A stretch of DNA of 64,000 nucleotides, taken from contig JARFIW010001480.1 of NCBI GenBank assembly GCA_036346225.1, positions 8,277,001 through 8,341,000 of the forward strand, in the 5' to 3' direction. A program made the position numbers and the translations under genes. The notes beneath the pieces are model-generated. The model was not told the origin of the DNA. It worked only from the letters and a program-made list of their open reading frames with translations, and made no database searches. This stretch comes from Platerodrilus igneus. Lineage: Eukaryota > Arthropoda > Insecta > Coleoptera > Lycidae. This document shows positions 11,482 to 63,867 of the stretch, piece after piece (position 1 is the stretch's first letter; every line of letters starts with the position of its first letter).

Positions 11482-14000
11482 ATGTTTAATAAAGAAAAAA
11501 AAGCCTTCAGGATATCAAAATTTGATGAAAAAAAGAAAGCAAGAAAAAGAACTGGAGAAAACGAATTCTAAAATTACGCTATTTTTTCCTTCACCTTTAA
11601 GCACAAATATACAGACAGATGCAGATCTTCCATCGACTTCGAGAGAGGACCGGAAGGAGTCTAAACTACAAGAGATTCCATCAACATCTACAGACGAAGT
11701 TGAGGAAGACGAAGACGTAGTTTCTGCGGAAGTGGACGATACGCAACTTCCTCAAGATCCAGGTTTGTGGCCAAAAATATTGTCTCCTAGAGATGTACAA
11801 ATATTAATTGAAAACGGGCCTATTCATTATCGAAGTAAAAATTGTATAAATTATCCCAATGATAAAATATCAGGCCGAAGGTTTTCGGATAAATATTATT
11901 CACGAATTTTGTCTAATAATGAAAAAGTGGAACGGGAGTGGCTTTTATATTCAACAGAAAAAAATTCAGTGTTTTGTTTTTGTTGTAGAATATTTTCAAA
12001 TATTTTAGAAACAATTAAATTAAGTGATGAAAATGGACATAATGACTGGCACCAAATTGGTGAATATTTAAGTATCCATGAAAAAAAGTAAATTTCATTT
12101 TGAGAACTTAAAAAAATGATCAGAATGTTTCACTCGCTTAAAAAAAATGGCAACTATTGATTCTGCGGCTCAAAATTTAATTAATATAGAAACAAAATAT
12201 TGGCATGGAGTTATCGAGCGCATTTTTTATATTATTCAATTTTTTGCTGAGCAAAACTTGGCTTTATGTGGTACCAATAGCAAACTGTTTGAAAAAAAAT
12301 AATGGCAGTTTTCTAAAATGCATTGAAGTGTTAGCAAAATTTGATCCTATAATATCTGAGCACACGAGAAGGATCCAAATGCAGGAAAAGATAAAAATGC
12401 CTCATTATCTTGGGGACAAAATTCAAAACGAAATAATTAATTTAATAGGAGAAAATCTTAAATTAAAATTTTTAGGCATGATTAAAACAGCTAAATATTT
12501 TTCAATTGTACTTGATTGTACCCCGGATGCTAGTCATCAAGAACAAATATCAGTATGTGTTAGATTCGTTAATTCAGAAAATGTCGTCGTAGAACATTTC
12601 TTAACTTTTTGCCCTATAAATGATTGTACAGGTGAGGGTTTGAAAAATTTCTTAATAGAAACATTGGAAAAAAAATGGCTTAAATATTTCTAATTTACGC
12701 GGCCAAGGATATGACAATGGTGCAAACATGCGCGGTAAACATAATGGATTACAAAAAAAATTCTTAATATAAATCCAAGAGCATTCTTAGTGCCTTGTTA
12801 CAACCATAATTTAAATCTTGTCGTGAACGATGCCGCAGAATCAAATATTTCAAGTGTAAATTTTTTTTCTATAGTACAGGAATTTTATAATTTTTTTTCC
12901 GCTTCAACTAACCGTTGGTCAGTCTTAAAAACAAATATATCAAATTTAACCTTAAAACTCCTTATCTAATACAAGATGGTCTAGTAGAGTTGATGCTTTA
13001 CCTCCTTTAAGATATCAGCTTGGAGAAATATACGATGCTCTGTTTGAAATCTTTAGTGAAGGAAATAAAACTTTTGACAATAATTCAAAAAATATGGCAT
13101 CATCGCTTGCCAAAAAAATAAAAAATGTTGAATTTATATGTATGTTGATTTAATGGTATAATATTTTAAATAAAGTCAATATTGTAAGTAAACTTTTACA
13201 AACTGAGGATTTTAATATAGCAGAGGCCTGTGCTAATTTAACAACTTTAGTTAATTGGTTAACAGAATACAGATCAGATAAAGGATTCCACGACTTGTTA
13301 GTCGATGCTCGTGAAATAGCTGATTCATTAGACGTTGATTTTGAATTTAAAAAAAAAAGATGGCTTGAGGGTGAGAAAAGCTAAGAAACAATTCAGTTAC
13401 GAACACGATGATGAACCCACTGAAGATGAAAAATTAAAATTTAAAGTAAACTCTTTTTTTAATATGTTAGATATAACTATAGAATCTGTAAATGAAAGAT
13501 TTCAATTATTATCAGCTTATTCAAATCATTTTAACTTTTTGTGGGACATTTCCAATTTTTCCAAATATTCTAAACAGGAGCAGTTAAAGTTATGTACAGA
13601 CCTTGAAATAGTATTAACTGATCTAAATCTCAATGAACGTGACATAAGTGGTGTAGAACTCCTAAACGAATTACAGTTTATTAATTTAGGTGAAGTGAAC
13701 ACTTCCACTCCTACAGAAACTTTAAATTACTTTATTAATAATAATTTGAAACAATTCTTTCCAAACACTTATGTGGCTTTACAAATTTGGTTAACTATGC
13801 CAGTATCTGTCGCCACAGCAGAACGTTCGTTTTCAAAATTAAAAATGATAAAAAACTATCTAAGATCTAGTATAGCTCAGGAAAGACTGGCAAATCTTGC
13901 TATTATTTCAATTGAAACTGAACTACTAAACGATTTAGAAACTGAAGAATTGATAAATAAATTTGCAAAAAATAAAGCACGCAAAGTCAAGTTCGTTTAG
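11482..14000 (+). pseudogene. hAT transposase, TTF-type zinc finger + DUF4371 + hATC
   Basis: The start is near the ATG at 11482, with a frame slip in an A-run just after it. The open piece 11522-12091 has a KITLFF motif and an acidic stretch. It then carries the TTF-type finger block (DPGLWP, GRRFSDKYY, REWLLYS, VFCFCC). The catalytic region follows in pieces: IVLDCTPDASHQEQIS (near 12510), RGQGYDNGANM (near 12700, after one extra A in an A-run) and NRWSVL. The end (13335-14000) holds the hATC dimerisation block with VATAERSFSKLK. At least four frameshifts or stops break it, so it is dead. The family excises and inserts DNA by cut-and-paste, leaving 8-bp duplications. Confidence 0.85.
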
Positions 14001-20697: not shown

Positions 20698-21229
20698 TGA
20701 AGCGGGCTACTGCTACCGCGTTTCTCTAATTTAAAACAAGTAATAACAAGAGTCTTTATTACTCACTGTTCACAAGTCTAATTAACAGTATATGCCTTAT
20801 TTATAGATGTTTTCAGTCCAATTAACAATAAAGCACTATCACACTAATGAATTTACAAGCACTAATATTTTCTTAAACTAACTTCTTTACCATAGGTCCA
20901 TTAATAACACTAACACAACTATTTTTATTACACTTCTATCTATTTATGTATACAACAAACTGCATGTACATTAGACACAGCATATAACATTTATGTATAC
21001 TCTTGGACTTCCAAAAGCTCAACTACTTTTACTTTACAACGGAATAATTTATGTTAGACATTCTACTATAGACTAACTCTTGCATTTATTAGCGGTCTTA
21101 TATATACTCTGAATTAAATGGGATGACTCATCCTCCAGTAATTACTAGAAGAATTCTCGAACCCTGGAGAATATGCAGAGCCTACGGCGCTTGTGTGTTT
21201 GACGGGTTGCCTAATAGTAGCTTGCAACA
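20698..21229 (-). repeat. LTR (3' LTR in element sense), macrodomain gypsy family
   Basis: 532 bp; + strand begins TGAAGCGGGCTACTG and ends CTTGCAACA, the reverse complement of the family's TGTTGC...TACA ends. It is preceded in element sense by a G-rich polypurine tract (run of C at 21232-21241 on the + strand). Confidence 0.9.
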
Positions 21230-21239
21230 CTACCCCCCC

Positions 21240-22160
21240 CCTTTAAAACCGTTACGTCTCGTAACTGTAAATACATTTTGACGCCAATTTGATAACTGAT
21301 GACTGTATCAGCAGCTATCTTCTCTGGTGCATCCACCGCGTTGTTAGAAATAACAGTCAACACTCTTTTCTTGGTCTTGGTAGGCAACCGGTTGATAACA
21401 ACTAACAAGGACCTGGACGTTGGTTTCTTGGAAAACTACTTCTAGCATATTTCGGACTATCCTCCAATTTAAGCGATCCAGTCCACAGCCTAGCTTAGGC
21501 ACTGCTAGTTTCGTTACTCAATTTTCCATCATTTGAGCCTTAAGATTCAGCAAAGCCTTTCATAGATGTCCTAACTAGGTCTCTGCCATGAAGAATTTTT
21601 GGTGACCAGATAGTAAACATAACGCTTTTTATCCTGAAAAACCAAAGCTTTTCCTACAGTTGGCTGCTGTTTTACTAATTCATCCACACATCCAAACTTT
21701 TTCTTAAAAACAACAGCTATTCTCCTTGACATTTCCAGATCTTGAGCTACGCAATGTACAAGGGAATACTCTTCTGGTGCTCTAAACAGATCTTACTGTT
21801 TTTCAACAACAACGCCAAATCTCGCCTTAGCGGAACCACCATACACCGCCATTAAACTCTCAAAATCTACATTTGGCTCATGATTAATAACTTGTCGAAC
21901 ACCATTCTCATTATTCGAGTCTTCCTGGTTGTTGCCAGCGAAGGATGTTAAACGATCAAAGTGTACCACTTTTGGTTTACCACGGGGAGATCTTCTGATC
22001 CGGTACACTACATCATTAATCCTTTTCATCACTTCGTACGGGCCTTCCCATTATCTTTGTAATTTTGGCGACAATCCACGTTTTCTATGTGGATTATACA
22101 ACCACACCAAATCTCCAGGTTGATAACCACCTTCTTGTGCTCTCGTGTCATATTGTGATT
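21240..22160 (-). pseudogene. Integrase tail, macrodomain and CCCH finger (degenerate)
   Basis: On the minus strand the integrase C-terminal region (VVYRIRRSPRGKPKVVHFD, near 21960) leads into VEKQ, a stop (a CAA codon in the other copy is TAA here) and DLFRAPEEYSL. The macrodomain follows: RRIAVVFKKKFGC, YVYYLVTKNSSW, a stop, and KLGCGLDRLNW. The lysine and aspartate corresponding to the TARG1 catalytic pair are both still encoded. The CCCH finger follows with all four metal ligands but two stops. The same module in both copies shows the fusion is older than either insertion. Confidence 0.8.
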
Positions 22161-23111
22161 TCATTCGATCGCTTGCTGCCTGGATATTTTTCGGACTTTT
22201 TCGTGAATGCTATTTGATCTTTCATGAAGCTTACTAACGTAATCTTCACCTGCGATCTCTCCTCCAGGTTTAAATCCAAAGTAAAGATCACATAGTAGCC
22301 GCAATTCACGTCCTAACATCACGCAAGCGGGCGAGTATCCTGCGCTGTCATGTACCGAAGATCGGTACGCCAGTAGAAACAAATGTAAATATTGATCCCA
22401 GTCTCGTTGATGTTCAGAGACAACTTTGATCAGGTACTTTCCTAACGTCCTGTTCATTCTTTCAACCATCCCATCCGACTGGGGATGAAGTGGCGTGGTT
22501 CTAGTCTTCCTAATTCGGAGATGCTTGCAGACGTTTTGAAACAACACTGATTCGAAGTTCCGACCTTGATTGGAGAGTAATTCCAACGGAACTGCAAAGC
22601 GACAAAACAACTCCTTCACTAGTACATCTGCAACCGTCTCGGCTTCTTGGTTAGGTATAGCATATGCCTACGGCCATTTGGTAAAATAATCCATTGCAAC
22701 CAAGATGTATTTATTTCCCTTCTCTGATTCAGAAAACGGACTAGCTATATCAATGGCTACCCTCTCAAAAGCATTCCCCACGTTATACTGTCACATTGGG
22801 GCTTTCCGTTTTGTGACCGGGCCATTTGCAAAGGCACACAATTCACATTTCCGGCACCACTCCTTCACCCAATAGGATCTTTCTCTCACTCTTTCGAGAG
22901 TTCTTTTCACGCCAAAGTGCCCTCCGGAAATATCATCGTGCAAGTGCTGCAACACATCCCGCACTCTGCTTCTCGGCACTATCACTCGAAGTCTCTCAGT
23001 GCCATCTTCACATTCCAGGCGTCGTTTCAAGATTCTATTTTCAATCACCAAGAAGTCCCATTGTGCCCAGTATGCCTTCAGGCTCCTACTTGAAATACTA
23101 ATTTCTCCCAA
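22161..23111 (-). pseudogene. Integrase zinc-binding and core region
   Basis: 22791-23111 holds the HHCC-type segment (LQHLHDDISGGHFG and CRKCELC). 22161-22619 holds the end of the DDE core (LLSNQGRNFES, HPQSDGMVERMNRTLG). Compared with the full copy, Asp of LHSDQG is Asn here, so the core lacks one catalytic acid. Frame breaks separate the pieces. Confidence 0.8.
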
Positions 23112-24300
23112 ACTGGTCGTTGTCTTCTACTTTTCCACTCAATAATACGTCCCAATTCGGTGTCATTCTTCTGGTCTTCTCGTATTATTTCGGGTTGCCA
23201 AGTATCATCGGTTACCGTCATTCTATGGATGACACTTATTTTCTCTTTCATCTTGGAGCAATGATTACAGTCTACCGGACAAGATATTCTTGATAGAACG
23301 TCTGTAATCCGATGGCTAGTTCCCACACGATATTCTGTGTCAAAGTGATATTCCTGTAGCCGCTCTATCCACCTTGCAACTTGCCCTTCAGGATTTCGAA
23401 ACTTCAGTAACCATTTTAGTGCAGCATGGTCTGTTCTCAACAGGAATATACGGCCGTATAAGTACTTATAAAAAAACTCTACGGATTTGACGATGGCCAA
23501 CAGCTCCCTTCTTGCCACGCAATAGTTCCTTTCTGTCCGCGACAAGACCTTGCTGAAATACCGAATAATTTTTTCTTGTCCGTCCTGCACTTGACAAAGA
23601 ACGCTTCCTATAGCTGTGTTACTGGCATCGGTATCCAACACAAATTTCCCCTCTATCAGTGGATAACTCAAAATTGATGCTGTAACTAGTAGCCGTTTCA
23701 GTTGTTCAAATGCACTGTGGCAGTCGTCATTCCAATCATATTCTTGTCCATTTGCAGAGGCACACAATTCACATTTCCGGCATCACTCCTTCACATCTTC
23801 TTTGCAGTTCACCCAATAGGATCTTTCTCTCACTCTTTCGAGAGTTCTTTTCACGCCAAAGTGCCCTCCGGAAATATCATCGTGCAAGTGCTGCAACACA
23901 TCCGGCACTCTGCTTCTCGGCACTATCACTTGAAGTCTCTCAGTGCCATCTTCACATTCCAGGCGTCGTTTCAAGATTCTATTTTCAATCATCAAGGAGT
24001 CTCACTGTGCCCAGTATGCCTTCAGGCTTCTACTTAAAATACTAATTTCTTCCCAAGCTGGTCATTGTCCTCTATTTTTCCACTCAATAATACGTCCCGA
24101 TTCGGCGTCATTCTCCTGGTCTTCTCGTATTCTTTCGGGTTGCCAAGTATCATCGGTTACCGTCATTCTATGGATGATACTTATTTTCTCTTCCATCTTG
24201 GAGCAATGCTTGCGGTCTACCGGACAAGGTCTCCTTGACAGAGCGTCTGTATTCCAATGGCTAGTTCCTACACGATGTTCTGTGCCAAAGTCATATTGTT
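22822..24300 (-). repeat. Internal tandem duplication of RNase H tail + integrase finger
   Basis: The stretch at about 22822-23345 recurs at about 23743-24300 (shared phrases on + strand such as AATTCACATTTCCGGCA and GATCTTTCTCTCACTC). The second lacks nothing, while the first has lost about 20 bp coding for LNCKEDV. In element order this means RNase H tail-finger-RNase H-finger. Single template switching during reverse transcription would explain it. Confidence 0.8.
23078..23767 (-). pseudogene. RNase H domain and linker to integrase
   Basis: 229 open codons with FVLDTDASNTAIGSVL, RRELLAIVKSVEFF and RTDHAALKWL, the RNase H blocks of gypsy polymerases. They are followed by the acidic linker before the integrase. 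Its first residues (CASANG) come from an integrase zinc finger and join abruptly to QEYDWNDD, marking an internal rearrangement junction at about 23745. Confidence 0.85.
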
Positions 24301-24321
24301 GCTGCTCAACCGGTTGTTTCT

Positions 24322-25515
24322 TTATTGAGTACAGTGTCTCTGTATATGACCAATCTCACCGCAGTTCCAGCATCGCAGACCCCATCTCTGCGGTCGTTGT
24401 CTTTCCAGCCTTTTTGCCTTTTGTTTTTCAAACACACGGTTGATTATTTCATCTATGCTGTTCTGCGCTTGACCAGGTTCCTCTAAGCCAGACCAAACTT
24501 TGTGACTCATTCTGTGTGATGTCTGCTTAGCTGCTTCAAATTCAAGCGCATTAGCCAGTGCGTCGTCTAACATTTTTGGCCATGCTAATCTTAGCGGTTG
24601 CTGTTGTTCGAGAAAGCTATCTGGTGCCGTTGGGTATGCCAATCTAGCTAATTTGGCGATGTCAGCTTCGAATTCTTGCAGGCTTTCACTTGTCTTTTGC
24701 GAGCGGTTCTTAACTTGTGCGTGGTAAACCTGTTGAAGGTGAGCATCTCCATATCTCATCTCAAGCTTCGATGTTAAGAGGCCGTAATCATTCTGCTGGT
24801 GATTGGGAATTGTTTGCAAGATGTTAAGAGCTTCCCCCCGTAGGGCCACTATTAAGGAGATAGCCTTCTCTTTGTTGCACCAACCGTTAGCTATTGCCGC
24901 AGCTTCAAATTGTTTCAAATATGTAAGCCAAGGTGTTTTACCATCGAATGTAGGTGGTTTCACTTTAAATTTTGACGATGATGACTCGCTTCCTTCCATG
25001 CTTCTTATTTCTGGAATGTTCTGGTTTACAGCTTGGTTTGCTAATCCAAGTGACCCCGTTGTTAGTGAAATCATTTGTTCTTGCAACCTCATCACATCTT
25101 CTTCCATTTTTACCCAAATACTGTCCAACTTTTGCTCAACCATCTTTACTTGTTCAGTGACATCTTCTGTCAATGCGATGGAGCTTTCTATTAATCTTTG
25201 TTCTAACGTGGTCGTCTTTTTATTCAACTCTTCCAATTTCATCGCGTTTTCACTAAACCGTTCTTTTATTTTCTTAGCATTTTTACTTAACCTTTCGGTA
25301 AGGTTTGATTCCAGTTCAACTGACCTCACTAAGTTTTCACTCAGTGTCACTTCTAGTTTAGCCGACTTCTCTTCCATTTTTTCAGCATTGTCACTTAATC
25401 TTTCCATTTTCTCAGCATTTTCAGTAAACTTTCCTTCCATACCGGATTTAAAATCCTTAAGAAAATTCATTAAAGTTTCTGCCTCCATCTTACTTTGGTT
25501 TCTTGTAACAGGCAT
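24322..25515 (-). pseudogene. Gag, macrodomain gypsy family (rearranged copy)
   Basis: About 397 residues from the ATG at 25515 (MPVTRNQSK). A long N-terminal coiled coil with repeating SENAEKME-like heptads (residues about 20-130) is followed by the capsid-like region (PPTFDGKTPWLTYLKQFEAA) and one CCHC knuckle (CWNCGEIGHIQRHC). Compared with the full copy it lacks the FVDGVKDGEI segment after SFLEQ. Downstream it joins RNase H sequence directly, so protease and RT are deleted. Confidence 0.85.
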
Positions 25516-25594
25516 ATACAAACTACTTAAATATCTTTAGACTTGTGTGTTTTACTTTTAAATTAATCACTATATATCCCGCACCTGACACCAG

Positions 25595-26125
25595 TGAATC
25601 GGGCTACTGCTACCGCGTTTCTCTCATTTAAAACAAGTATAACCAGGATCTTTATTGCTCACTGTTCACAAGTGTAATTAACAGTATATGCCTTATTTAT
25701 AGATGTTTTCAGCCAATTAACAATGAAACACTATCACACTAATGAATTTACAAGCACTAATATTTTCTTAAACTAACTTCTTTACCATAGGTCCATTAAT
25801 AACACTAACACAACTATTATTTATTACACTTCTATCTATTTATGTATACTACAAGCTGCATGTACATTAGACACATCATATAACATTTATGTATACTCTT
25901 GGACTTCCAAAAGCTCAACTACTTTTACTTTACAATGGTATAATTTATGTTAGACATTCTACTATAGACTAACTCTTGCATTTATTAGCGGTCTTATATA
26001 TACTCTGAATTAAAAAGGATGACTCGTCCTCCATTAATTGCTTGAAGAATTCTCGAACCCTGGAGAATATGCAGAGCCTACGGCGCTTGTGTGTTTGACG
26101 GGTTGCCTAATAGTAGCTCGCAACA
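25595..26125 (-). repeat. LTR (5' LTR in element sense), macrodomain gypsy family
   Basis: 531 bp; + strand begins TGAATCGGGCTACTG and ends CTCGCAACA, followed by the ATAT duplication (26126-26129). Next to it in element sense is TGGTGTCAGGTGCGGG, the likely primer-binding region, as in the full copy. Confidence 0.9.
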
Positions 26126-34261: not shown

Positions 34262-35083
34262 TCAACAAAACCTGAGAAAGATTTCCGCTCCGAATAGCAT
34301 GTCAATTTTATCAGGAACATTAAAATTAAGATCAGCTAAGGCCAAACCTCGAGTATGCGACCATTCCTTGACCTCTATAGACGACGAAGATAATTGATTA
34401 CAAATGTTAGGTAAAATATAACAATCAATTTCATATGCTGGAGACCTTGCTCCCGAGGGGCTGACTACACACGATAGTGCACTAGACACCAACGACGAAT
34501 TCAAGCCAAGTCATTGAACAGTGACATTGGCTCTCCGTTTCCTTAAACCTAATTTCTGACGGCACCCTTCAGTCATAAAACTTTCAATGGATCCGTTATC
34601 TAAAATTACACGAACAGGTTGCAATTTTCCTGTATAATCTAGCACCGACACCATTGCTGTAGCTAACAGCGTCGTTGTATGTTCTAATAACGTCGAAATT
34701 AACAAGTTGGTGGCAGGTTGTTCATGCACAACCGCCGACGACAGATTGTCTTCACTGGGTCTACTAGTAGAAAAAAGTCTAGACGCCGCTCTCCAAGGAA
34801 ACTCTGACCTTTGACGGTGAGTTTGTCTGCGTGTAGACACCGATTTTTCTCGTTTATCGAAGTGAAGTAACGGATTGTGTGACTGATGACATTTTCTACA
34901 CGACCAATCTAACTTACAATTTTTCATCGAATGTGAAGTATTTAAACATTTAATACAAAGGTTCTCAACCTTTACCACTTCAAATCTTTCTTGAGGGGGT
35001 TTTATCGAGAAACTGCTTATATCTATAAATAGGATGCACAGCTTGACATAAACTACAATTTTTACCATCATTGGTGGTACCAA
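34262..35083 (-). pseudogene. BEL/Pao zinc knuckles and aspartic protease
   Basis: 35083-34511 reads CIKCLNTSHSMKNCKLDWSC and CHQSHNPLLH (two linked knuckles), then after a spacer VRVILDNGSIESFM, the DNGS active-site box (DSGS/DTGA-like) of the family's protease. The frame then continues in 34262-34504. The overlap with the Gag frame at 34980-35083 marks a frameshift. Confidence 0.75.
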
Positions 35084-36047
35084 CTAATGAAGTTTTAGCC
35101 GAAGAGCTAACGAACTTTTCTTTTTCCATTTGTTTCATGAAATCTCGAGATTTTAAGCATGTTTCTGAAGCAATGTCATTTATTTCCAACACTTTACATT
35201 GTTTTTCAATGTACGACCTTAAATCTTTGAACGAAGGAATCTCGTCACTATTTCCTAATTCGAAACGCTTTAAAATGTTTGTATCTAATTTTTTAGCTAC
35301 CAGATTAAACAAAATTAAATCTAATAAATCTATTTCCATCTGTTTTAACGCAAATATATTTTCATCAAAACAACTAATTAATTGCCGGAGTTCCGTGTGC
35401 GAGTCAGGGGAACTTACCTTAGGGCATTTTTCGAGAGCATTAAAATATGTTAAAAGTAATAACCTCTTGGACTGAAAACAATTAGTAATGATTTCATAAG
35501 CTTCATCGTATGCACAATCGTTTAATGGCAAATGTTTTATTAACGCACGCGACGACTCATCTAGTGTATCTACGAGATGGCAAAATTTTTCAACGGGTAA
35601 CAAACTGACATTATCATGAATCAATCGCTTATAAATTGCATGATAACTCCCAAAATCCGAAATGCGTGCCGAGAACCGCGGGACAGAAAGGTGTTTCAAG
35701 CGAATTTTACTATTTACCGACAAAGAATTATTCATATTTTCAACCTGCGGCTTATTTTCTACCCGATTTAATTCACATTGTTCAGCGATAATACGAATAT
35801 TTAATAGATAATCATCGATTTTCACCCTAAGAGCCAAAAATTCGTCCAAGTGTTCACTCTCTTCATCAAAGAAAATATCTTTGCAAAAAAACTTGAAATG
35901 AGTTTCAATTTGTTCGACGCTTTTCATCGATGCTCTAATTAAAGCACTCGATACATTTTCCGGTTGATTAATTTTACTGTATATATGATCCAACCTTTTA
36001 ACTACAAATTTAGCTTCAAGAATAGCTTTATCAATTGATATAACCAT
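34980..36047 (-). pseudogene. BEL/Pao Gag (DUF1759-like)
   Basis: 355 codons. The N-terminal helical part ends near residue 110 with LSVPRFSARISDFGSYHAIYKRLIHDN, the conserved Gag block of Pao elements (usually LPKIELPxFxGxxxxWxxFxxxF). A C-terminal region with KNCSLCQAVHPIYR follows, where the knuckles begin. The frame is lost at about 34990-35080 and continues in the neighbouring piece. Gag forms the particle. Confidence 0.8.
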
Positions 36048-36549
36048 ATCTGATTAATGATTAATAAACGACAATAGAAATTAATATAAAAACAATGCGT
36101 AGCTCAAATACGCTACAACTAATTAATCTACGAAATTAAATTATTAATGGACAAATGCAACTAACTACAGTGCACGCCCGACAAATCGTTTAACGTTTCC
36201 TGTAAATTCCAACCCCTTTATTATACTAAGTTGGATGAACCCGAGTGGTTCCTCGAACTTGACGACGAAAATAAGATAAGAATTTGCAATACAATAACCT
36301 TCATAAATTTAGTTTACCTAAAGTAAACTGACCGACCACTAATCTTTGCGGCAAACGACAAGGGATATATTGTAAAATCTACCGTTACGACTAAATGTTG
36401 CTACCATTAAATGTGTAAGCACGATGTTAGTCTCTTTGTAACACGTTCAAACATAATCAAAACTACGACCATTATTAAATTAAAGTATAAATGAGGAGCG
36501 AAAGGAATAAGATCTAATAATTAATTAAATAATCCGGTTTTGAAGGGCA

Positions 36550-41045: not shown

Positions 41046-42090
41046 TTTAAGTTTGAAAACGTACATATTTATTCCAAATCACTTTATCAACCAAAGTATC
41101 AATACCTTGAAAGCCTACTGCGACCAATAAAAGGAATCAAATATTATACTTTTTCCAGTTCCGATAACATTATATCGCCATCTGATGCTCGAAATATATC
41201 TATATTTGTTTTTGATGATGTTGCTTGCGATAAACAAGGTATAATTAGGAAATACTCTAGTATGGGGCGCCATAAACAAGTAGACAGTTTTACCTTTGTC
41301 AAAGTTATACTCGTATACCTAAGCACTTACTACGTGATAATGCTAATCTTTAGTTTTATTTAAACAAGACGATTTAAACTTATAACATATTGTAGCGGGC
41401 TACTACTACCGCGTTTCACTAATTTAAAACAAGCAATAACAAGAGTTTTTATTACTCACTGTTCACAAGTCTAATTAACAGTGTATGCCTTATTTATAGA
41501 TGTTTTCAGTCCAATTAACAATGAAGCACTATCACACTAATTAATTTACAAGCACTAATATCTTCTTAAACTAAATTCTTAACCATAGGTCTATTAACAA
41601 CACTAACACAATTATTTATTTATTACACTTTTGTCTATTTATGTATTCTACCAGCTGCATATACATTAGACACGTTCAAATAATATAACATTTATGTTTA
41701 CTCTTGGACTTTCAAAAACTCAACTATTTAACTTTACACGATATAATTTATATTCGACATTCTGATATAGACTAACTCTGTACTTCATCAACGGTCTTAT
41801 TTATACCCTGAATTAGAAAGGATGATTCATTCTCCAGTAATTGCTAGAAAATTCTCGGTCTTTGGAGAATATACAGTGCTTACGGCGCTTGTGTGTTTGA
41901 CGGATTGCCTAATAGTAGCTCGCAACAATATATATGACAATCACATCAATACTGACATGAAGTATGATAAATTCCGTGAATCATGTGTTGGAAAGACAAA
42001 TACGGTTTTTTAGTTGTGGACAAGGATAGTGATCCAGGTCAAGGAAGGTACCGATTAGGTTTTGATCACTTCATACATATTTAAACCTTG
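41046..42090 (+). pseudogene. Maverick packaging ATPase, split by a solo LTR
   Basis: From 41047 the + frame(s) read the second half of a FtsK/HerA-type packaging ATPase: YSKSLYQPKYQYLE, SSDNIISPSDARNISI, FVFDDVACDKQ, YSSMGRHKQVD, then CQSYTRIPKHLLRDNANL in another frame. A solo LTR then intervenes (41391-41927). Afterwards IYDNHINTDMKYDKFRESC and VVDKDSDPGQGRYRLGFD follow to a stop near 42087. The N-terminal Walker A part is absent, lost at the inversion junction 41043-41046. The enzyme family pumps DNA into capsids. Confidence 0.7.
41391..41927 (-). repeat. Solo LTR of the macrodomain gypsy family
   Basis: + strand TGTAGCGGGCTACTACTACC ... CTCGCAACA, 537 bp, matching the LTRs at 20698, 25595, 52508 and 58515. 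It is flanked by ATAT on both sides (41387-41390 and 41928-41931), with no interior. Removing the LTR and one ATAT rejoins the ATPase frame into an expected HIYDNHINTDM, confirming the 4-bp duplication. Recombination between two LTRs would leave this. Confidence 0.9.
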
Positions 42091-52120: not shown

Positions 52121-52507
52121 TTGCAATTATTTATCATTGCTACCAACTGATTGTAGTGGCTCGCGTACCTCACCGACGGGGGTATAATAATATAATCCTT
52201 ATTAATTACAACTTTCCTGAATTTTGCCTGATTAATGGTATTTAGATAAAACCACTGTGTTATCTTGACAACAAACACATCTGTTTAATTTATTCCTATT
52301 ATATTGGGCATTGCTTGATTATTTCTTCGACAAACAAGTTTGTAACTGCATTGTGTAAACAACTTCACTTAATACTTAGCATTTGTTCGCGTTGTTTCTT
52401 CTCTACTAAATCAGACAGTTGAAAGTCATTATGAAAATGTGATTTCTATTTTTACGTGACTGGTAAGTACTTGCTTGGTGAGATTCCTTTAATAACGTTG
52501 TTAATAT
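52121..52507. other. Unassigned DNA left of the full gypsy element
   Basis: No gene or repeat recognised. It ends with ATAT (52504-52507), the target duplication of the element. Confidence 0.5.
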
Positions 52508-53030
52508 TGTTGCGATCCACTATTTGGCAACCCGTCAAACATACAAACGCTTGGGGCACAGCGCCTTCTCAAGGATTCCAGAATTCTTCTAGAAATTACG
52601 GGAGCATGAGTCATCCTTGTAATCCAGAGTATATATAAGACCGCTAATGAATGCAAGGGTCAGTCTATTCTTGAATGTCTAATATAAATTATATCGTTGT
52701 AAAGTAAACGTAGTTGAGCTTTTAGAATATATACATAAATGATATGCTGTGTCTAATGTGCATGCAACTTGCAGTATACATAAATAAATAGAAGTGTATA
52801 AACAAATAGTTGTGTTAGTGTTGTTAATGAACCTATGGTAAAGAAGATAGTTTAAGAAGATATTAGTGCTTGTAAATTCATTAGTGTAATAGTGCTTCAT
52901 TGTTAAGTGTCCTGAAAACATCTATAAATAAGGCATATACTGTTAATTAGACTTGTGAACAGTGAGTAATAAAGACCATTATTATTACTTGTTTTAAATT
53001 AAAGAAACGCGGTAGTAGTAGCCCGTTACA
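52508..53030 (+). repeat. 5' LTR
   Basis: TGTTGCGATCC ... CCCGTTACA, 523 bp. It contains GAGTATATATAAGACC (TATA box at about 52627-52637) and AGTAATAAAGACC (poly(A) signal near 52967). The GTGTCCTG at about 52910 reads GTGGACTG in the other LTR. Confidence 0.95.
52627..52639 (+). promoter_or_regulatory. LTR TATA box
   Basis: AGTATATATAAGA, the only strong TATA in the LTR, at a usual distance before the poly(A) signal. The same sequence in the 3' LTR supplies the stop codon of the Pol-macrodomain frame. Confidence 0.6.
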
Positions 53031-53050
53031 CTGGTGTCAGGCATTTGTGG
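53031..53050 (+). promoter_or_regulatory. Primer-binding region
   Basis: CTGGTGTCAGGCATTTGTGG immediately after the LTR; the rearranged copy has CTGGTGTCAGGTGCGGG. It is placed where minus-strand priming occurs. The matching tRNA was not identified. Confidence 0.5.
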
Positions 53051-53105
53051 GGTATATAGTGATTAATTTAAAACACAAGTCTAAAGACATTTAAGTAGTT
53101 TGTAT

Positions 53106-55372
53106 ATGCCAGTTACAAGAAATCGAAGTAAAATGGAGGCAGAAGCTTTAATGATCTTCCTTAAGGATTTTAAATCCGAAGTGCAAGTGACACTCAATGA
53201 AAACTTAGTGAGGTCAGCTAAACTGGAAGTAACACTAGATGAAAGGTTTACTGAAAACGCTGAGAAAATGGAAAGGTTAAGTGAAAATACTGCCAAAATG
53301 GAAGAAAAATTGAATGAAAGTACAGCCACGTTAGAACAAAGATTAATGGAAAGTTCCATTGCATTGAAAGAAGATTTCACTGAACAGGTAAAAACAGTTG
53401 AGCAAAAGTTGGACAGTAAATTGATGAAAATGGAAGATGTGATGAGGCTGCAAGAACAAGTGATTTCACTAACAACGCGACCACTTGAATTACCAAGCCA
53501 AGTTGTTAATCAGAACATTCCAGAAATAAGAACCATGGAAAGAAGCGAGTCAATTCCGTCTAAATTTAAAGTAAAACCACCTACATTCGATGGTAAAACA
53601 CCTTGGCCCACATATTTGAAACAATTTGAAGCTGCTGCAATAGCCAACGGTTGGTGCAACAAAGAGAAGGCTATCTCCTTAATAGTGGCCCTGCGGGGGG
53701 AGGCTCTTAACATTTTACAAACGATTCCCGATCACCAGCAGAACGATTACGGCCTCTTAACACCAAAGCTTGAGATGAGATATGGAGATGCTCACCTTCA
53801 ACAGGTTTACCACGCACAAGTTAAGAACCGCTCGCAAAAGACAAGTGAAAGCCTGCAAGAATTGAAGCTGACATTGCCAGGTTAGTTAGATTGGCATACC
53901 CAACGGCACCAGATAGCTTCCTCGAACAACTTGCTGTCCAAACATTTGTGGATGGCGTTAAGGATGGCGAAATACAGCAAGCGCTAAGACTAGCACGGCC
54001 AAAAATGTTAGATGATGCACTGGCCCATGCGCTTGAATTTGAAGCAGCTAAGCAGACATCACATAGGGTGAGTCACAAAGCTCGGTCTGCCTTAGAGGAA
54101 CCTGGTCAAGCTCAGAACAGCATAGATGAAATAATCAACCGTGTGTTTGAAAAGCGAAAGGCGGAAAGGCTGAAAAGACAACGACCACGGAGATGGCGTC
54201 TACGATGCTGGAGCTGCGGTGAAGTTGTCCATATACAGAGACGCTGCACTCAACCAAAGAAACAACCGGTTGTGCCAAAGCTGGTCCATGTAAAGGGGCG
54301 AACTTCGACAGCACAGCGTAGTGCCCCGGAGATTATCATCCGTGCTGCATCGTCGGTGGAAAGTCTGGACAGCATTTATATCGATGGTAGAATTAATGGT
54401 AGGGTTGTCCGATTACTTGTAGATACAGGAGCGACAAGAACTATTGTGAGGCCAGATTTGGTTGGTCGTGGAAAAGTGCTACCTGTATCGGTGTGTCTTC
54501 GAACGGCAAGTGGTGAGAAAATTTGTACTCACGGAGAGACTGCCGTTATGTTGACAATTGGGGACAAATTAATTAATCATCGAGTGTTGGTAGCTGAAAT
54601 TACAGAAGAAGTGATCTTGGGAATGGATCTCATGAGAGAATATGGGTTTCATGTAAACATGAAAGAAAATGTGCTTCGGATAGATAATGATGAGATTCCA
54701 TTTCAAGGTAGGAGTAACCAGACGATGCAAGTTCGAATGATTTGCGATATGAAAATACCCGAGAAGGCGGAAATGATAGTAATGGGACGCCCGGATGGTA
54801 CGCTCCGGGAAGGACAAGTATGCATGATGGAAGCAACTGAATCGGGAATGGGTCAGGAGGGACTTCTGATTGGAAGAACGCTGGTAAAGTCTCGAAATAT
54901 GGTACCAGTAAGGGTGCTGAACATTAATCCCCATACAGTGACCCTGAAGAAAGGCATGATTGTGGGAAGTTGCATTCCAGTATGTCATATTAAACGTTGT
55001 GTGGACGACACGAAAAATAAACCAACCAACGGTTGCTCACAGAAATTGCTGGATATGTTGATACCCTCGTGTCAAGGATTAAATGGCGACCAACTGGGCA
55101 AGGTAAAAGAACTGGTCGGACGATATCGAGGTGTGTTTGCACTGAATGATAGTGAGAAAGGAAGGACGAATGTTGTGCAACACAAGATCAATACTGGAGA
55201 TGCGCAACCGATAAGACAACACCCCAGGCGGCTTCCTTTGGCAAAACGTAAGGAAGCTGAGCAAATTATCACCGATATGGAAGAACAGGGAGTGATTGAA
55301 CCCTCGAATAGTCCATGGGCATCCCCGGTAGTGCTTGTCAAGAAAAGGACGGGTCGACAAGGTTTTGTGTAG
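53106..55372 (+). pseudogene. Gag-protease region, one frameshift
   Basis: ATG 53106 (MPVTRNRSK). A coiled coil of repeated ENAEKME/ENTAKME heptads is followed by PPTFDGKTPWPTYLKQFEAA (capsid-like). A single-base loss near 53865 shifts the frame, which resumes from 53887 (RLAYPTAPDSFLEQLAVQTF). A CCHC knuckle follows (CWSCGEVVHIQRRC, 54210-54251). The aspartic protease has LLVDTGATRTIV (54416), VILGMDLM (54615) and a flap-like region. The RT start ([34 protein letters not shown]) then begins before the next frameshift at about 55343. Gag and protease therefore formed one frame with RT in the intact element. Confidence 0.9.
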
Positions 55373-57361
55373 ACTACCGGCGGCTTAATAACGTGACAAA
55401 GAAAGACAGCTATCCTTTGCCCAGAATTGATGACACCTTAGATACTCTATCCGGATCTAAATGGTTTTCGACCTTGGACCTGAAAAGCGGATACTGGCAG
55501 GTAGGCTTGGAGCCAAACGATAAAGAAAAGACTGCCTTTACAATTGGAACTGGATTATGGCAGTTCAAGGTCATGCCATTTGGATTATGCAATGCTCCTG
55601 CTACTTTTGAACGATTGATGGAGTCGGTGCTGCGTGGACTGTCCTGGAAGACATGTCTGGTGTACCTGGACGACGTGATAGTGTTAGGTCGGTCTTTCGA
55701 AGAACATCTTAAGAACCTAGAGGAGATATTCCAGAGATTACGGGGCAAACCTTACATTGAGCCCCAAGAAGTGTCACCTGTTTGGAAAAGAGGTGAAATA
55801 CCTAGGACATGTCGTTTCGGAGACCGGAATAAGAGCTGACCCTGACAAAATAAAACGGTACAAGAGTGGCCTACACCAGCAGATATACACCAACTACGCA
55901 GTTTTCTAGGATTGTGCACATATTACCGACGTTTTATACTTGGGTTTGCGAACATTGCCAAACCGTTAACAAAATTAACCGAAGATGGACAAGAATATGA
56001 TTGGAATGACGACTGCCACAGGGCATTTGAACAACTGAAACGGCTACTAGTTACAGCACCAATTTTGAGTTATCCAAGGATGGAGGGGAAATTTGTGTTG
56101 GATACCGACGCCAGTAACACAGCTATAGGAGGCGTTCTTTCTCAAGTGCAGGACGGACAAGAAAAAGTTATTGGGTATTTCAGCAAGGTCTTGTCGCGGC
56201 CAGAAAGGAACTATTGTGTGACAAGAAGGGAGCTGTTGGCCGTCGTCAAATCCGTAGAGCACTTTTATAAGTACTTATACGGCCGTAAATTCCTGTTGAG
56301 AACAGACCATGCTGCACTGAAATGGTTATTGCAGTTTCGAAATCCTGAAGGGCAAGTGGCAAGGTGGATAGAGCGGAATATGATTTTGATACAGAACATC
56401 GTGTAGGAACTAGCCATCGGAATGCAGACGCTCTGTCAAGGAGACCTTGTCCGGTGGACTGCAATCATTGCTCCAAGATGGAAGAGAAAATAAGTGTCAT
56501 CCATAGAATGACAGTAACCGATGATACTTGGCAACCCGAAAGAATGCGAGAAGACCAGGAAAATGACGCCGAATTGGGACGTATTATTGAGTGGAAAAAT
56601 AGAGGACAACGACCAGCTTGGGAAGAAATTAGTATTTTAAGTAGGAGCCTGAAGGCATACTGGGCACAGTGGGACTCCTTGATGATGGAAAATAGAATCT
56701 TGAAGCGACGCCTGGAATTTGAAGATGGCACTGAGAGACTTCAATTGATAGTGCCGAAAGCAGAGTGCCGGAAGTGTTGCAGCACTTGCACGATGGTATT
56801 TCCGGAGGGCACTTTGGCGTGAAAAGAACTCTCGAGAGAGTGAGAGAAAGATTCTATTGGCTGAACTGCAAAGATTATGTGAAGGAGTGGTGCCGGAAAT
56901 GTGAATTGTGTGCCTCTGCAAATGGCCCGGTCTCAAAACGGAAAGCCCCAATGAGACAGTATAACGTGGGGAATCCTTTTGAGAGGGTAGCCATTGATAT
57001 AGCTGGTCCGTTTCCTGAATCAGAGAAAGGAAATAAATACATCTTGGTTGCAATGGATTATTTTACCAAATGGCCGGAGGCATATGCTATACCTAACCAA
57101 GAAGCCGAGACGGTTGCAGATGTACTAGTGAGGAGTTGTTTTGTCGTTTGGAGTTCCGTTGGAATTACACTCCGATCAAGGTCGAAACTTCGAATCAGTA
57201 TTGTTTCAAAATGTCTGCAAGCATCTTGGAATCAGGAAGACTAGAACCACGCCACTTCATCCCCAATCGGATGGAATGGTTGAAAGAATGAACAGGACGT
57301 TAGGAAGTACCTGGCCAAAGTTGTCTCTGAACATCAACGAGACTGGGACCAATATCTGCAT
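55315..57361 (+). pseudogene. Reverse transcriptase-RNase H-integrase region, several frameshifts
   Basis: [14 protein letters not shown] (55349), [32 protein letters not shown] and LVYLDDVIV, the YLDD catalytic box (55660). Frame losses follow near 55745 and 55857. RNase H: FVLDTDASNTAIGGVL, RRELLAVVKSVEHF, RTDHAALKWL (55912-56406). About 7 bp are lost near 56375. Integrase: HLHDGISGGHFG ... CRKCELC zinc finger (56780-56925), VAIDIAGPFPESEKGNKYI, MDYFTKWPEA, HSDQGRNFES (57170) and HPQSDGMVERMNRTLG (57256). Further shifts are near 56757, 57140 and 57303. The catalytic motifs are intact; only small indels break the frame. Confidence 0.9.
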
Positions 57362-58645
57362 TTGTTCCTACTGGCGTACCGATCTTCGGTACATGACAGC
57401 ACAGGGTACTCGCCCGCTTGCGTAATGCTAGGACGTGAATTGCGGCTACCATGTGATCTTCAGTTTGGATTTAAACCTGGAGAAGAGATCGCAGGTGAAG
57501 ATTACGTTAGTAAGCTTCGTGAAAGATCAAATAGTATTCACGAAAACGTCCGAAAGAATATACAGGCAGCAAGCGATCGAATGAAATCACAATATGACAC
57601 GAGAGCACAAGAAGGTGGTTATCAACCTGGAGATTTAGTGTGGTTGTACAATCCACAAAGAAAACGTGGATTGTCGCCAAAACTACAAAGACAATGGGAA
57701 GGGCCGTACGAAGTGTTAAAAAGGATTAATGATGTAGTGTACCGGATCAGAAGATCCCCTCGTGGTAAACCGAAAGTGGTACACTTTGACCGTTTAACAT
57801 CCTACGCTGGCAACAACCAGGAAGACCCGAATAATGATAATGGTGTTCGGCAAGTTATTAATCATGAGCCAAATGTAGATTTTGAGAGCTTTATGGCGGC
57901 GTATGGTGGTTCCACTAAAGCGAGATTTGGCGTTGTTGTTGAAAAACAGCAAGATCTGTTTAGAGCACCAGAAGAGTATTCCCTTGCACATTGCGTAGCT
58001 CAAAATTTGGCAATGTCAAGGGGAATAGCTGTTGTTTTCAAGAAAAAGTTTGGATGTGTGGCTGAATTAGTACAACAGCAGCCAACTGTAGGAAAATCTT
58101 TGGCCCTTCAAGATAAAAATCGTTATGTTTACTATCTGGTCACCAAAAATTCTTCATGGCAGAGACCTAGTTATGGACATCTATGGGAGGCTTTGCTAAA
58201 TCTTAAGGCGCAGATGATGGAAAATGGAGTAACGAGACTAGCGGTGCCCAAGCTGGGCTGTGGACTGGATCGCTTAGACTGGAGGATAGTCCGAAATATG
58301 CTAGAAGTAGTTTTCCAGGGAACCAACGTCCAGGTTCTTGTTTGTTGTTATCAACCGGTTGCCTACCAAGACCAGGAAAAGAGTGTTGACTGTTACTTCC
58401 AACGACGCGGTGGATGCACCAGAGGAGATAGCTGCCGATACCGTCACCAGTCATCGAATTGGCGTCAAGATGGATTTACAGTTACGAGACGTAACGGTTT
58501 TAAAGAGGGGGCAGTGTTGCGATCCACTATTAGGCAACCCGTCAAACATACAAACGCTTGGGGCACAGCGCCTTCTCAAGGATTCCAGAATTCTTCTAGA
58601 AATTACGGGAGCATGAGTCATCCTTGTAATCCAGAGTATATATAA
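57362..58645 (+). CDS. Pol C-terminus: integrase tail + OARD1/TARG1-type macrodomain + CCCH zinc finger
   Basis: 427 uninterrupted codons; the ATG is internal to the integrase, not a true start. Residues 1-150: integrase C-terminal domain with GDLVWLYNP and WEGPYEVLKRINDVVYRIR. Residues about 194-331: macrodomain, with DLFRAPEEYSLAHCVAQ, GIAVVFKKKFG, YVYYLVTKNSSW and AVPKLGCGLDRLDW. This matches human OARD1 (TARG1) motif by motif. Lys262 and Asp303 correspond to its catalytic Lys84 and Asp125, 41 residues apart in both. Residues about 343-363: CYFQRRGGCTRGDSCRYRH, a C-x7-C-x5-C-x3-H finger. The frame then crosses into the 3' LTR and stops at 58643-58645. TARG1 removes ADP-ribose from acidic residues; activity here is inference. 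Confidence 0.9.
   Translation: MFLLAYRSSVHDSTGYSPACVMLGRELRLPCDLQFGFKPGEEIAGEDYVSKLRERSNSIHENVRKNIQAASDRMKSQYDTRAQEGGYQPGDLVWLYNPQRKRGLSPKLQRQWEGPYEVLKRINDVVYRIRRSPRGKPKVVHFDRLTSYAGNNQEDPNNDNGVRQVINHEPNVDFESFMAAYGGSTKARFGVVVEKQQDLFRAPEEYSLAHCVAQNLAMSRGIAVVFKKKFGCVAELVQQQPTVGKSLALQDKNRYVYYLVTKNSSWQRPSYGHLWEALLNLKAQMMENGVTRLAVPKLGCGLDRLDWRIVRNMLEVVFQGTNVQVLVCCYQPVAYQDQEKSVDCYFQRRGGCTRGDSCRYRHQSSNWRQDGFTVTRRNGFKEGAVLRSTIRQPVKHTNAWGTAPSQGFQNSSRNYGSMSHPCNPEYI
58502..58514 (+). promoter_or_regulatory. Polypurine tract
   Basis: AAAGAGGGGGCAG directly before the 3' LTR, the expected plus-strand primer position. It lies within the coding frame of the Pol tail. Confidence 0.75.
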
Positions 58646-59037
58646 GACCGCTAATGAATGCAAGGGTCAGTCTATTCTTGAATGTCTAATATAAATTATA
58701 TCGTTGTAAAGTAAACGTAGTTGAGCTTTTAGAATATATACATAAATGATATGCTGTGTCTAATGTGCATGCAACTTGCAGTATACATAAATAAATAGAA
58801 GTGTATAAACAAATAGTTGTGTTAGTGTTGTTAATGAACCTATGGTAAAGAAGATAGTTTAAGAAGATATTAGTGCTTGTAAATTCATTAGTGTAATAGT
58901 GCTTCATTGTTAAGTGGACTGAAAACATCTATAAATAAGGCATATACTGTTAATTAGACTTGTGAACAGTGAGTAATAAAGACCATTATTATTACTTGTT
59001 TTAAATTAAAGAAACGCGGTAGTAGTAGCCCGTTACA
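58515..59037 (+). repeat. 3' LTR
   Basis: 523 bp, same as 52508-53030 except one T/A near its start and a two-base change (TC to GA) near 58916. ATAT follows. Confidence 0.95.
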
Positions 59038-59041
59038 ATAT

Positions 59042-62573: not shown

Positions 62574-63482
62574 TTAGTTTTCATTTCTACAACTTAAAAT
62601 ATATTTTTTTAAATTACTCTTGAATTTTCTTTGAGAAGGCTGATTGGTAACTGATTTTGGTAATGTATTATATATCTTAACACCATAATGAAATACATTT
62701 TTTGTGGTTATTGTTTTATTCTTCTTGTATATATAGTAATTGTCTGCTTGTCTTGTGCTGTAGTTATGTATATCTGACACTTTAATTAAGTTGCTAACCA
62801 AGTATGAAGGCAGCAAACCATTTATAATTTTATATATAAAAACCATACTATTATATTTCATTTGTTCATGAACATTTAAAAAATTAAGGCATTCTAACAT
62901 TTTACAGACTTTGGCAAATCTGCTACATTTTAATAAACATCTCATTGCACGATTTTGTATCTTTTGCAATCTTTCCAAATCACCTTGGTTTGAGACAATA
63001 TGGCAATATGTTAGGTGTGGATAAACTATTGCTCTATATAAAGTTATTTGAGCAAAACTTGATAACTTTGCACTAATTCTTCTCAGAAATCCAACCTTTT
63101 TGCTTACTTTATTTATAACCACCTGTAGATGCATTTTAAAAGTTAATTTTCGGTAGATTATTACGCCAAGGTATTTAATGTTCTCTACCAGTTCAATATC
63201 AGACCCATCTATTTGTACATTCCTATTTTCTGTTTTGATCATTTGATAACTTCTATCATTCGTTAACAACATCCATTTTGTTTTATCAACATTTATCTTC
63301 AGCTTATTTCCAACTAAATATTTGCTAATTCTTATTAAGTCGCTATTTACAGATTGAATCAGGTTTATTACATTTGCACCTTCAGCATATATTAAAGTGT
63401 CATCAGCAAACATATGCATCTTTGTTACCTTCACTACATTCACTATATCGTTTATGTAAATTATAAAAAGCAATGGTCCCAA
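62574..63482 (-). pseudogene. Non-LTR reverse transcriptase, palm/thumb and C-terminus
   Basis: 302 codons: GPLLFIIYINDIVNVV, MHMFADDTLIYAEG (FADD catalytic box), LKINVDKTKWML and EDIKYLGVII-like VENIKYLGVIIYRKL. The C-terminal region with LYRAIVYPHLTYCHIV and LQKIQNRAMR follows, to a stop near 62574. The preceding residues EWGVPQGSIL, in the same frame just upstream, complete the block before GPLLF. It is the longest intact non-LTR reading frame in the window. Confidence 0.88.
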
Positions 63483-63600
63483 AATACTTCCTTGTGGAAC
63501 ACCCCACTCAATTTCTGCTTTATTAGATGTTTCTCGTTGCCATCTCGTTTCTTGCTCCCTGTTTTGTAGGTAGTCTTTAAACCACTCTAACGCATTGTCT

Positions 63601-63867
63601 TTAACCCCATATTTTCCAATTTTGAATGAGAATATTTCTACTTATAGTCTCAAATGCTCTTTTGTAATCTATAAAGACTGCACACACTGCCTTTCCTTTA
63701 TCCATTGATTCTTTCCAGTCATTTATAATTAGCTGAATCGCTGTTTCACACGAGTGTTTCGTTTGAAAACCAGACTGATAGGTGGTTAATATATTAGTCT
63801 CATCCAAGAATTGCTTCAGTTGCTTATATATTACTGTTTCTAATACCTTTTCAATTGTGGCCAACAT
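63601..63867 (-). pseudogene. Non-LTR reverse transcriptase, N-terminal fingers
   Basis: 88 codons: MLATIEKVLETVIYKQLKQFL, YQSGFQTKHSCETAI and VCAVFIDYKRAFETI (first catalytic acid, FIDYxRAF). The upstream EEYRPIN is in a neighbouring frame up to about 63890. A frameshift near 63600 separates it from the rest. Confidence 0.82.

What the first reader, a model, noticed from the sequence alone, without database searches (positions are those of the whole stretch)
57941..58460. Ty3/gypsy retrotransposon with a captured OARD1/TARG1-type macrodomain and a CCCH zinc finger at the end of Pol
Directly after the integrase C-terminal domain the same open frame encodes a complete macrodomain whose motifs follow human OARD1/TARG1 (SLAHC, GIAVVFKKKFG, YYLVTK, GCGLDRL). 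A C-x7-C-x5-C-x3-H finger comes next. Established: TARG1 reverses ADP-ribosylation on acidic residues and uses Lys84 and Asp125; viral macrodomains counter PARP-based defence. Seen: equivalents at Lys262 and Asp303 with the same 41-residue spacing. Inference: the element may erase host ADP-ribosylation during replication, with the CCCH finger giving RNA or ADP-ribose-chain binding. I know of no described gypsy lineage with this pair, but cannot search.
Basis: partly seen in the sequence, partly recalled or inferred. Interest (0 to 1): 0.93.

Follow-up and report, generated by a model that had tools for sequence, protein, structure and literature searches.

The report
Retrotransposon integrase with fused ADP-ribose eraser
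A virus-like jumping gene in what is likely a beetle genome carries, joined to the end of its DNA-inserting enzyme, a domain matching human TARG1 that is predicted to strip ADP-ribose marks, plus a finger that likely binds RNA; related elements of several beetles keep the pair, so it would probably help the element resist a host control.

Summary
Window 52508-59037 is a Ty3/gypsy insertion with both ends (523-bp LTRs, 3 mismatches, ATAT target duplication, PBS, PPT). In the open frame 57284-58645, after the integrase C-terminal module, lie a TARG1/OARD1 macrodomain (57926-58360) and a CCCH finger (58391-58447), just before PPT and 3' LTR. The best solved relative is human OARD1/TARG1 by sequence (E 1.6e-36) and by fold (TM 0.95); the Lys/Asp catalytic pair is present. 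It is not a host exon: a second, decayed copy in this window (20698-26125, minus strand) carries the module between LTRs, and 118 of 120 listed database relatives have macrodomain then CCCH, the named ones all from beetles. Between the two window copies the macrodomain has dN/dS 0.31 (bootstrap 0.15-0.70), which points to selection on the protein. A distantly related gypsy Pol carries the domain elsewhere, between RNase H and integrase. Most likely it is an ADP-ribosyl hydrolase tethered to the integration machinery; activity, substrate and benefit are inferred. My paper searches found no such gypsy lineage; fish retroviruses with macro-domain proteins are the nearest precedent.

The parts
52504..52507 (.). 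target-site duplication ATAT, left
52508..53030 (+). 5' LTR, 523 bp
   Evidence: 3 mismatches to 3' LTR
53032..53042 (+). primer-binding site, TGGTGTCAGGC, one base after the LTR
   Evidence: sequence; tRNA-Leu as primer is recalled, untested
53085..53885 (+). gag, first open stretch
   Evidence: ORF; by position only, no Pfam gag match above cut-off
54206..54247 (+). CCHC zinc knuckle of gag (C-x2-C-x4-H-x4-C)
   Evidence: pattern
54380..54637 (+). aspartic protease
   Evidence: PF13975 7.9e-11
55342..55743 (+). reverse transcriptase (piece)
   Evidence: PF00078 2.5e-29
56002..56373 (+). RNase H
   Evidence: PF17919 3.3e-35, PF17917 6.1e-32
56759..56923 (+). integrase H2C2 zinc-binding domain
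   Evidence: PF17921 1.4e-19
56975..57142 (+). integrase core, interrupted in this copy
   Evidence: PF00665 9.9e-6, below cut-off; break between the ORFs ending 57244 and starting 57284
57701..57796 (+). integrase C-terminal (p58-C, GPY-type) module
   Evidence: PF22938 6.1e-14
57926..58360 (+). OARD1/TARG1-type macrodomain; catalytic Lys codon 58145-58147, Asp codon 58268-58270
58391..58447 (+). CCCH zinc finger C-x7-C-x5-C-x3-H
58502..58514 (+). polypurine tract AAAGAGGGGGCAG next to the 3' LTR
   Evidence: sequence
58515..59037 (+). 3' LTR; the open frame ends inside it at 58645
59038..59041 (.). target-site duplication ATAT, right
20698..26125 (-). second, older copy of the same family (LTR pair 96.2% alike), flanked by ATAT; protease/RT part deleted or rearranged
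21386..21819 (-). macrodomain of the second copy, decayed (3 stops, one gapped codon); catalytic codons kept
21299..21355 (-). CCCH finger of the second copy, 2 stops; C, C, C, H residues kept
41391..41927 (-). solo LTR of the family (82%), flanked by ATAT

Best explanation
The stretch encodes a TARG1/OARD1-type macrodomain and a CCCH finger as the last parts of the Pol polyprotein of a Ty3/gypsy retrotransposon, and it is predicted to work as an ADP-ribosyl hydrolase that would be carried with the integrase into the integration complex. Shown here: the place between integrase and PPT/3' LTR, the match to TARG1 in sequence and predicted fold, the Lys/Asp pair, conservation of the arrangement in beetle relatives, and a dN/dS below 1. 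Inferred: the domain removes ADP-ribose that host PARPs place on acidic residues of Pol, Gag or host chromatin proteins, or on the phosphate ends of the new cDNA (both are known TARG1 substrates), and so keeps the complex competent for integration; the CCCH finger likely anchors this part to the element's RNA or the nascent cDNA complex.
For: TARG1 is the best match by sequence (1.6e-36) and fold (TM 0.95, 1.0 A, 44% identity). The catalytic Lys is kept in 125 of 125 and the Asp in 124 of 125 CCCH-bearing macrodomain rows (Aromia copies dominate and are not independent); both are among 14 macrodomain columns invariant in all 22 chosen rows. dN/dS between the two window copies is 0.31 (0.15-0.70) for the macrodomain and 0.10 (0.02-0.29) for the integrase C-terminal part. 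118 of the 120 listed relatives have macrodomain then CCCH. P0072 and P0117 carry RT, RNase H, integrase, macrodomain and CCCH in one protein. TARG1 cleaves Glu/Asp-linked ADP-ribose and ADP-ribose on nucleic-acid phosphate ends, with Lys84/Asp125 (PMC9411070, passages). A gypsy-encoded eraser of another kind, an AlkB m6A demethylase, was reported active in vitro (PMC9289625, abstract).
Against: No activity, cleavage product, expression or transposition was tested. Both window copies are broken. The GCG of the substrate loop (LGCGLD) is replaced in many copies (Aromia: IASGLD), which could lower activity. The macrodomain changes faster than the integrase. The Lys and Asp are as well kept in the rows without CCCH (128 of 128 and 126 of 128), so their conservation shows a kept enzyme family, not a use special to the element. 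Pfam's Macro model gives no match up to E 0.01 in P0002, P0016, P0072 and P0117 and stays below cut-off in P0027 and P0054; there the domain was found with the window's own macrodomain as query. The selection test rests on two copies. That PARPs act on gypsy elements of beetles is not known to me.
Confidence: 0.58

Rival explanations
1. Reader, not eraser: the macrodomain sits where chromoviruses carry a chromodomain and would tether the integrase to ADP-ribosylated chromatin (for example PARP-marked breaks), choosing where the element inserts.
For: Position right after the integrase C-terminal module; chromodomains target integration (PMC9289625, introduction). Three of three insertions of the family in this window have ATAT on both sides, though that speaks of DNA preference.
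Against: A pure reader need not keep the catalytic Lys/Asp pair, which is nearly invariant. In P0016 the domain lies on the other side of the integrase.
Confidence: 0.2
2. Counter-silencing factor released from Pol: the element's protease would free macrodomain-CCCH, which would remove mono-ADP-ribose from host repressors in the nucleus or bind ADP-ribosylated antiviral RNPs, without acting in the integration complex.
For: SIRT6 mono-ADP-ribosylates KAP1 to silence L1 in mammals (PMC4695847, passages); the CCCH protein ZAP/PARP13 restricts L1 (PMC4441479, abstract); a less constrained linker (dN/dS 0.50, 0.10-2.28, 42 codons) precedes the domain.
Against: Both precedents are mammalian; no cleavage site was looked for or identified.
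Confidence: 0.17
3. Passenger: a captured host domain kept by chance, without function in the element.
For: Faster change than the integrase; both window copies broken.
Against: dN/dS 0.31 with upper bound 0.70; arrangement kept in 118 of 120 listed relatives.
Confidence: 0.04
4. Host exon or assembly accident beside the element.
For: None found.
Against: The module lies between LTRs in two copies and in one protein with RNase H or integrase domains in relatives.
Confidence: 0.01

Closest known systems
Human TARG1/OARD1 (C6orf130)
   Same: Sequence, fold, Lys/Asp catalytic pair with 41-residue spacing
   Different: TARG1 is a small single-domain cell protein; here the domain is near the end of a retrotransposon Pol, followed by a CCCH finger
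Chromoviruses (Ty3/gypsy with a chromodomain)
   Same: An extra domain fused behind the integrase C-terminus
   Different: No chromodomain in the Pfam scan; the extra domain belongs to an enzyme family, with a CCCH finger
[quoted passage not shown] 2009, known to me only through PMC4977317, passage)
   Same: LTR retroelements carrying a macro-domain protein
   Different: Vertebrate retroviruses, described as additional reading frames; macrodomain subfamily not seen by me; here within Pol of gypsy elements of beetles, with CCCH
Orchid Gypsy elements with AlkB m6A demethylase (PMC9289625)
   Same: Ty3/gypsy lineage with a captured eraser enzyme, proposed to bear on host control
   Different: Separate reading frame, RNA demethylase, plants; in vitro activity reported there, none tested here
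Gypsy Pol P0016 (unnamed source), RNase H-macrodomain-integrase
   Same: OARD1-type macrodomain in a gypsy Pol; in the tree it joins the beetle element clade (97/90)
   Different: Domain at another place of Pol, no CCCH, integrase core 36% identical to P0003

Membership tests
Ty3/gypsy LTR retrotransposon | Two LTRs, short target duplication, PBS and PPT | tested here: met
Ty3/gypsy LTR retrotransposon | Pol order protease-RT-RNase H-integrase | tested here: met
   Pfam matches in that order at 54380-57796; RT-RNase H-integrase in order within single proteins P0072 and P0117
Ty3/gypsy LTR retrotransposon | Autonomous: this copy's gag-pol is intact (not defining of the family, tested for this copy) | tested here: not met
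   gag-pol falls into several frames
TARG1/OARD1 macrodomains | Closer to OARD1 than to other macrodomain classes in sequence and fold | tested here: met
   OARD1 chains at about 1e-36, next 5m3i at 1e-5, which names as DarG; TARG1 first in Foldseek
TARG1/OARD1 macrodomains | Catalytic Lys84/Asp125 equivalents | tested here: met
   Lys288/Asp329 of the frame; conserved
TARG1/OARD1 macrodomains | Hydrolysis of Glu/Asp-linked or phosphate-end ADP-ribose | not testable with these tools
   needs an assay
CCCH zinc finger | C-x7/8-C-x5-C-x3-H | tested here: met
   58391-58447; C 20, C 22, C 20, H 20 of 22 chosen rows
CCCH zinc finger | Passes Pfam's PF00642 cut-off | tested here: not met
   18.7 bits against 20.5; the Harmonia relative P0002 scores 20.5, at the cut-off
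Chromovirus | Chromodomain after integrase | tested here: not met
   no Chromo match in the frame up to E 1
Errantivirus-like gypsy | env gene after pol | tested here: inconclusive
   between 57284 and the 3' LTR the only other + strand ORF of 100 aa or more is 58311-58616, overlapping; no env profile search was made

The most novel reading that the evidence does not exclude
Ty3/gypsy elements have captured the TARG1 eraser more than once: a beetle lineage with integrase-macrodomain-CCCH, and other elements with RNase H-macrodomain(-integrase). The integrase-fused hydrolase keeps element cDNA ends and integration proteins free of PARP-added ADP-ribose, making ADP-ribosylation a standing front between insects and their retrotransposons.
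Probability: 0.35. Interest if true: 0.88.

Novelty: new variant of a known kind. Interest (0 to 1): 0.74.

Why it matters
If the hydrolase works, a retrotransposon carries an eraser of ADP-ribosylation bound to the enzyme that inserts its DNA. That would point to PARP-type enzymes as a control on insect LTR elements, give a natural gene to test this with, and show a new use of the slot behind integrase that chromodomains hold in other gypsy lineages. It also shows that beetle database entries named as C3H1-type, macro-domain or polyadenylation-factor proteins (names) can be pieces of such Pol proteins.

Tried and rejected
Host-exon reading: rejected by the second copy and the relatives. Chromodomain: no match. 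One capture for all elements including P0022: not rejected (AU p 0.26), so two independent captures are not proven; P0016 and P0022 as one clade gave p 0.047. A first AU test, which held elements, P0016 and P0022 together but left the nested leafhopper row outside, gave p 0.007 and is replaced. Origin from a beetle host gene is weak: beetle OARD1s are the neighbours of the element clade at 83/65 only. Rows left out: macrodomain stretches of 110 residues or less; P0019 and P0182 were therefore missing from the tree; the 41 tree rows were chosen by me; only the 120 listed of 192 hits, and the 120 listed of 125, were available. Other copies' DNA was sought in viral contigs and genome contigs: 35 loci with OARD1-type macrodomains in viral and bacterial records came, and none showed element Pol domains at E 1e-3. 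Paper searches for a described case: (one search was too loose to be useful); one search was for TARG1 residues. PMC6338049 (first part of four read, whole searched by term) names no macro domain; PMC9289625 has no word beginning with macro in its main text.

Full report
What is there. The window holds a Ty3/gypsy insertion with both ends at 52508-59037: LTRs of 523 bp with three mismatches, target duplication ATAT on both sides, a PBS one base after the 5' LTR and a polypurine tract against the 3' LTR. Pfam places protease, RT, RNase H, the integrase zinc domain, part of the integrase core (below cut-off) and the integrase C-terminal module in the usual order. gag-pol of this copy falls into several frames. 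The LTRs are nearly identical, so the insertion is young; whether the breaks are real or sequencing errors cannot be told here.

The finding. The frame 57284-58645 runs from the integrase C-terminal part through a macrodomain (57926-58360) and a CCCH finger (58391-58447). The macrodomain matches human OARD1/TARG1 at E 1.6e-36; the next class is 5m3i at 1e-5, a DarG. An AlphaFold model is good over the macrodomain (pLDDT 71-96 by block of ten from residue 211 to 360) and poor over the finger (43-54) and overall (mean 63); its best solved match is TARG1 4j5s (TM 0.95 by target length, rmsd 1.0 A, 44% identity). The catalytic pair of TARG1, Lys84 and Asp125 (PMC9411070, passages), has equivalents at codons 58145 and 58268, 41 residues apart. 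The finger matches CCCH models below Pfam's cut-offs in this copy; its four ligands are kept in 20, 22, 20 and 20 of 22 chosen rows.

It belongs to the element. A second copy lies on the minus strand at 20698-26125, with its own LTR pair (505 of 525 compared positions alike, 96.2%), ATAT on both sides, and the macrodomain and CCCH in the same place. It is decayed: 3 stops and one gapped codon in the macrodomain, 2 stops in the finger, and its protease/RT part is deleted or rearranged. The catalytic Lys and Asp codons are unchanged and the C, C, C, H residues are kept. A solo LTR lies at 41391-41927.

Relatives. A search with the macrodomain-CCCH part of P0003 gave 192 proteins, 120 listed. Of these 120, 118 have macrodomain then CCCH (not P0096 and P0141) and 115 go on with an LRRG-like tail. 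That tail usually ends in RRGQC, which I read as coded by the polypurine tract and the first LTR codon, as the other frame of this window shows; so the module would abut the 3' LTR in relatives as well. The named rows are Aromia, Molorchus, Callosobruchus, Gonioctena and Harmonia; nearly all are Aromia or Molorchus, many are gene models, and copies within one species are not independent. One search adds Acanthoscelides (complete finger), Brassicogethes (finger without its first Cys) and Aquatica (pieces, no finger seen), and a Holotrichia piece (no finger seen) (finger check). Aromia, Harmonia, Aquatica and Holotrichia were looked up and are beetles of three infraorders of Polyphaga; the others are beetles from recall. 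So the macrodomain with the element's lead-in is seen in three infraorders, but the complete macrodomain-CCCH pair only in Harmonia, Aromia, Molorchus, Gonioctena, Callosobruchus and Acanthoscelides among named hosts. P0072 and P0117 carry RT, RNase H, integrase, macrodomain and CCCH in one protein. Over all 262 proteins fetched the architectures were: Macro 131, Macro-CCCH 114, IN-Macro-CCCH 5, Macro-Macro 5, RH-IN-Macro-CCCH 4, RH-Macro-IN 1, RH-Macro 1, CCCH-Macro-CCCH 1.

Selection. Between the two window copies (codons with gaps or stops set aside) dN/dS is 0.31 for the macrodomain (141 codons, bootstrap 0.15-0.70), 0.10 for the integrase C-terminal part (103 codons, 0.02-0.29), 0.50 for the linker (42 codons, 0.10-2.28), 0.19 for the finger part (28 codons, upper bound 1.11, too few) and 0.24 for all (314 codons, 0.14-0.44). 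Decay after insertion pushes the ratio up, so selection in the active lineage was probably stronger. It is one pair of copies.

Origin. In a 41-row tree the element macrodomains, with one leafhopper protein (P0151) inside, form one side of a branch at 92/77; with P0016 added, 97/90. Beetle OARD1 proteins are the next neighbours at 83/65, weak. P0016 is a gypsy Pol with the macrodomain between RNase H and integrase; its integrase core is 36% identical to P0003's, against 75% and 82% for P0002 and P0072. It sits on a long branch. P0022 shows RNase H-macrodomain too; its place outside the element clade is not statistically firm (AU p 0.26). So the domain sits at two places in gypsy Pols; whether by two captures or by transfer between elements is open.

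How it likely works. TARG1 removes ADP-ribose from Glu/Asp and from phosphate ends of nucleic acids (PMC9411070). Fused to integrase, such an enzyme would act where PARPs meet new cDNA ends and integration sites. That is inference. The rival of a chromatin reader, in the slot of the chromodomain, is real but does not by itself explain the near-invariant catalytic pair. A released counter-silencing factor is a third reading.

Known or new. Searches of the paper library (listed under Tried and rejected) found no gypsy lineage with a macrodomain. Fish retroviruses with macro-domain proteins are on record (Basta et al. 2009, seen only as cited in PMC4977317), and an orchid gypsy lineage carries an m6A eraser active in vitro (PMC9289625; abstract, introduction and term search seen). 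Most subscription journals are not in the library, so absence from print is not shown. I file it as a new variant of a known kind: a Ty3/gypsy element with a new accessory enzyme domain.

Noticed in passing
52504-52507/59038-59041; 20694-20697/26126-26129; flanks of 41391-41927: All three insertions of this family seen in the window are flanked by ATAT on both sides, suggesting an insertion preference.
   Followed up: partly
20698-26125 (-): The second copy lacks the protease/RT part and carries two stretches matching element positions 3870-4418, one of them at 23748-24297.
   Followed up: partly
P0016, P0022 (proteins): Gypsy Pols with the OARD1-type macrodomain behind RNase H instead of behind integrase.
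   Followed up: partly
P0151 Macrosteles quadrilineatus: A leafhopper protein named OARD1-like whose macrodomain falls inside the beetle element clade: a possible element remnant, horizontal transfer or domesticated gene. No CCCH.
   Followed up: no
L001, L002, L015-L035; L003-L014: 23 viral contigs encode OARD1-type macrodomains (L001 looks like phage by eye from the neighbouring ORFs), and 12 bacterial contigs, 11 with Ruminococcus or other Clostridia-type names. Possibly counters to DarT-type defence.
   Followed up: no
P0054 and other Aromia moschata proteins: Aromia relatives begin with a SAP domain (PF02037) before the gag part, which I recall as unusual.
   Followed up: no
6482-8633 (+), 13332-13997 (+), 34983-36053 (-), 62574-63641 (-): Other mobile-element pieces in the window: endonuclease and RT stretches, a hAT dimerisation domain, a DUF1759 protein, another RT.
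   Followed up: no
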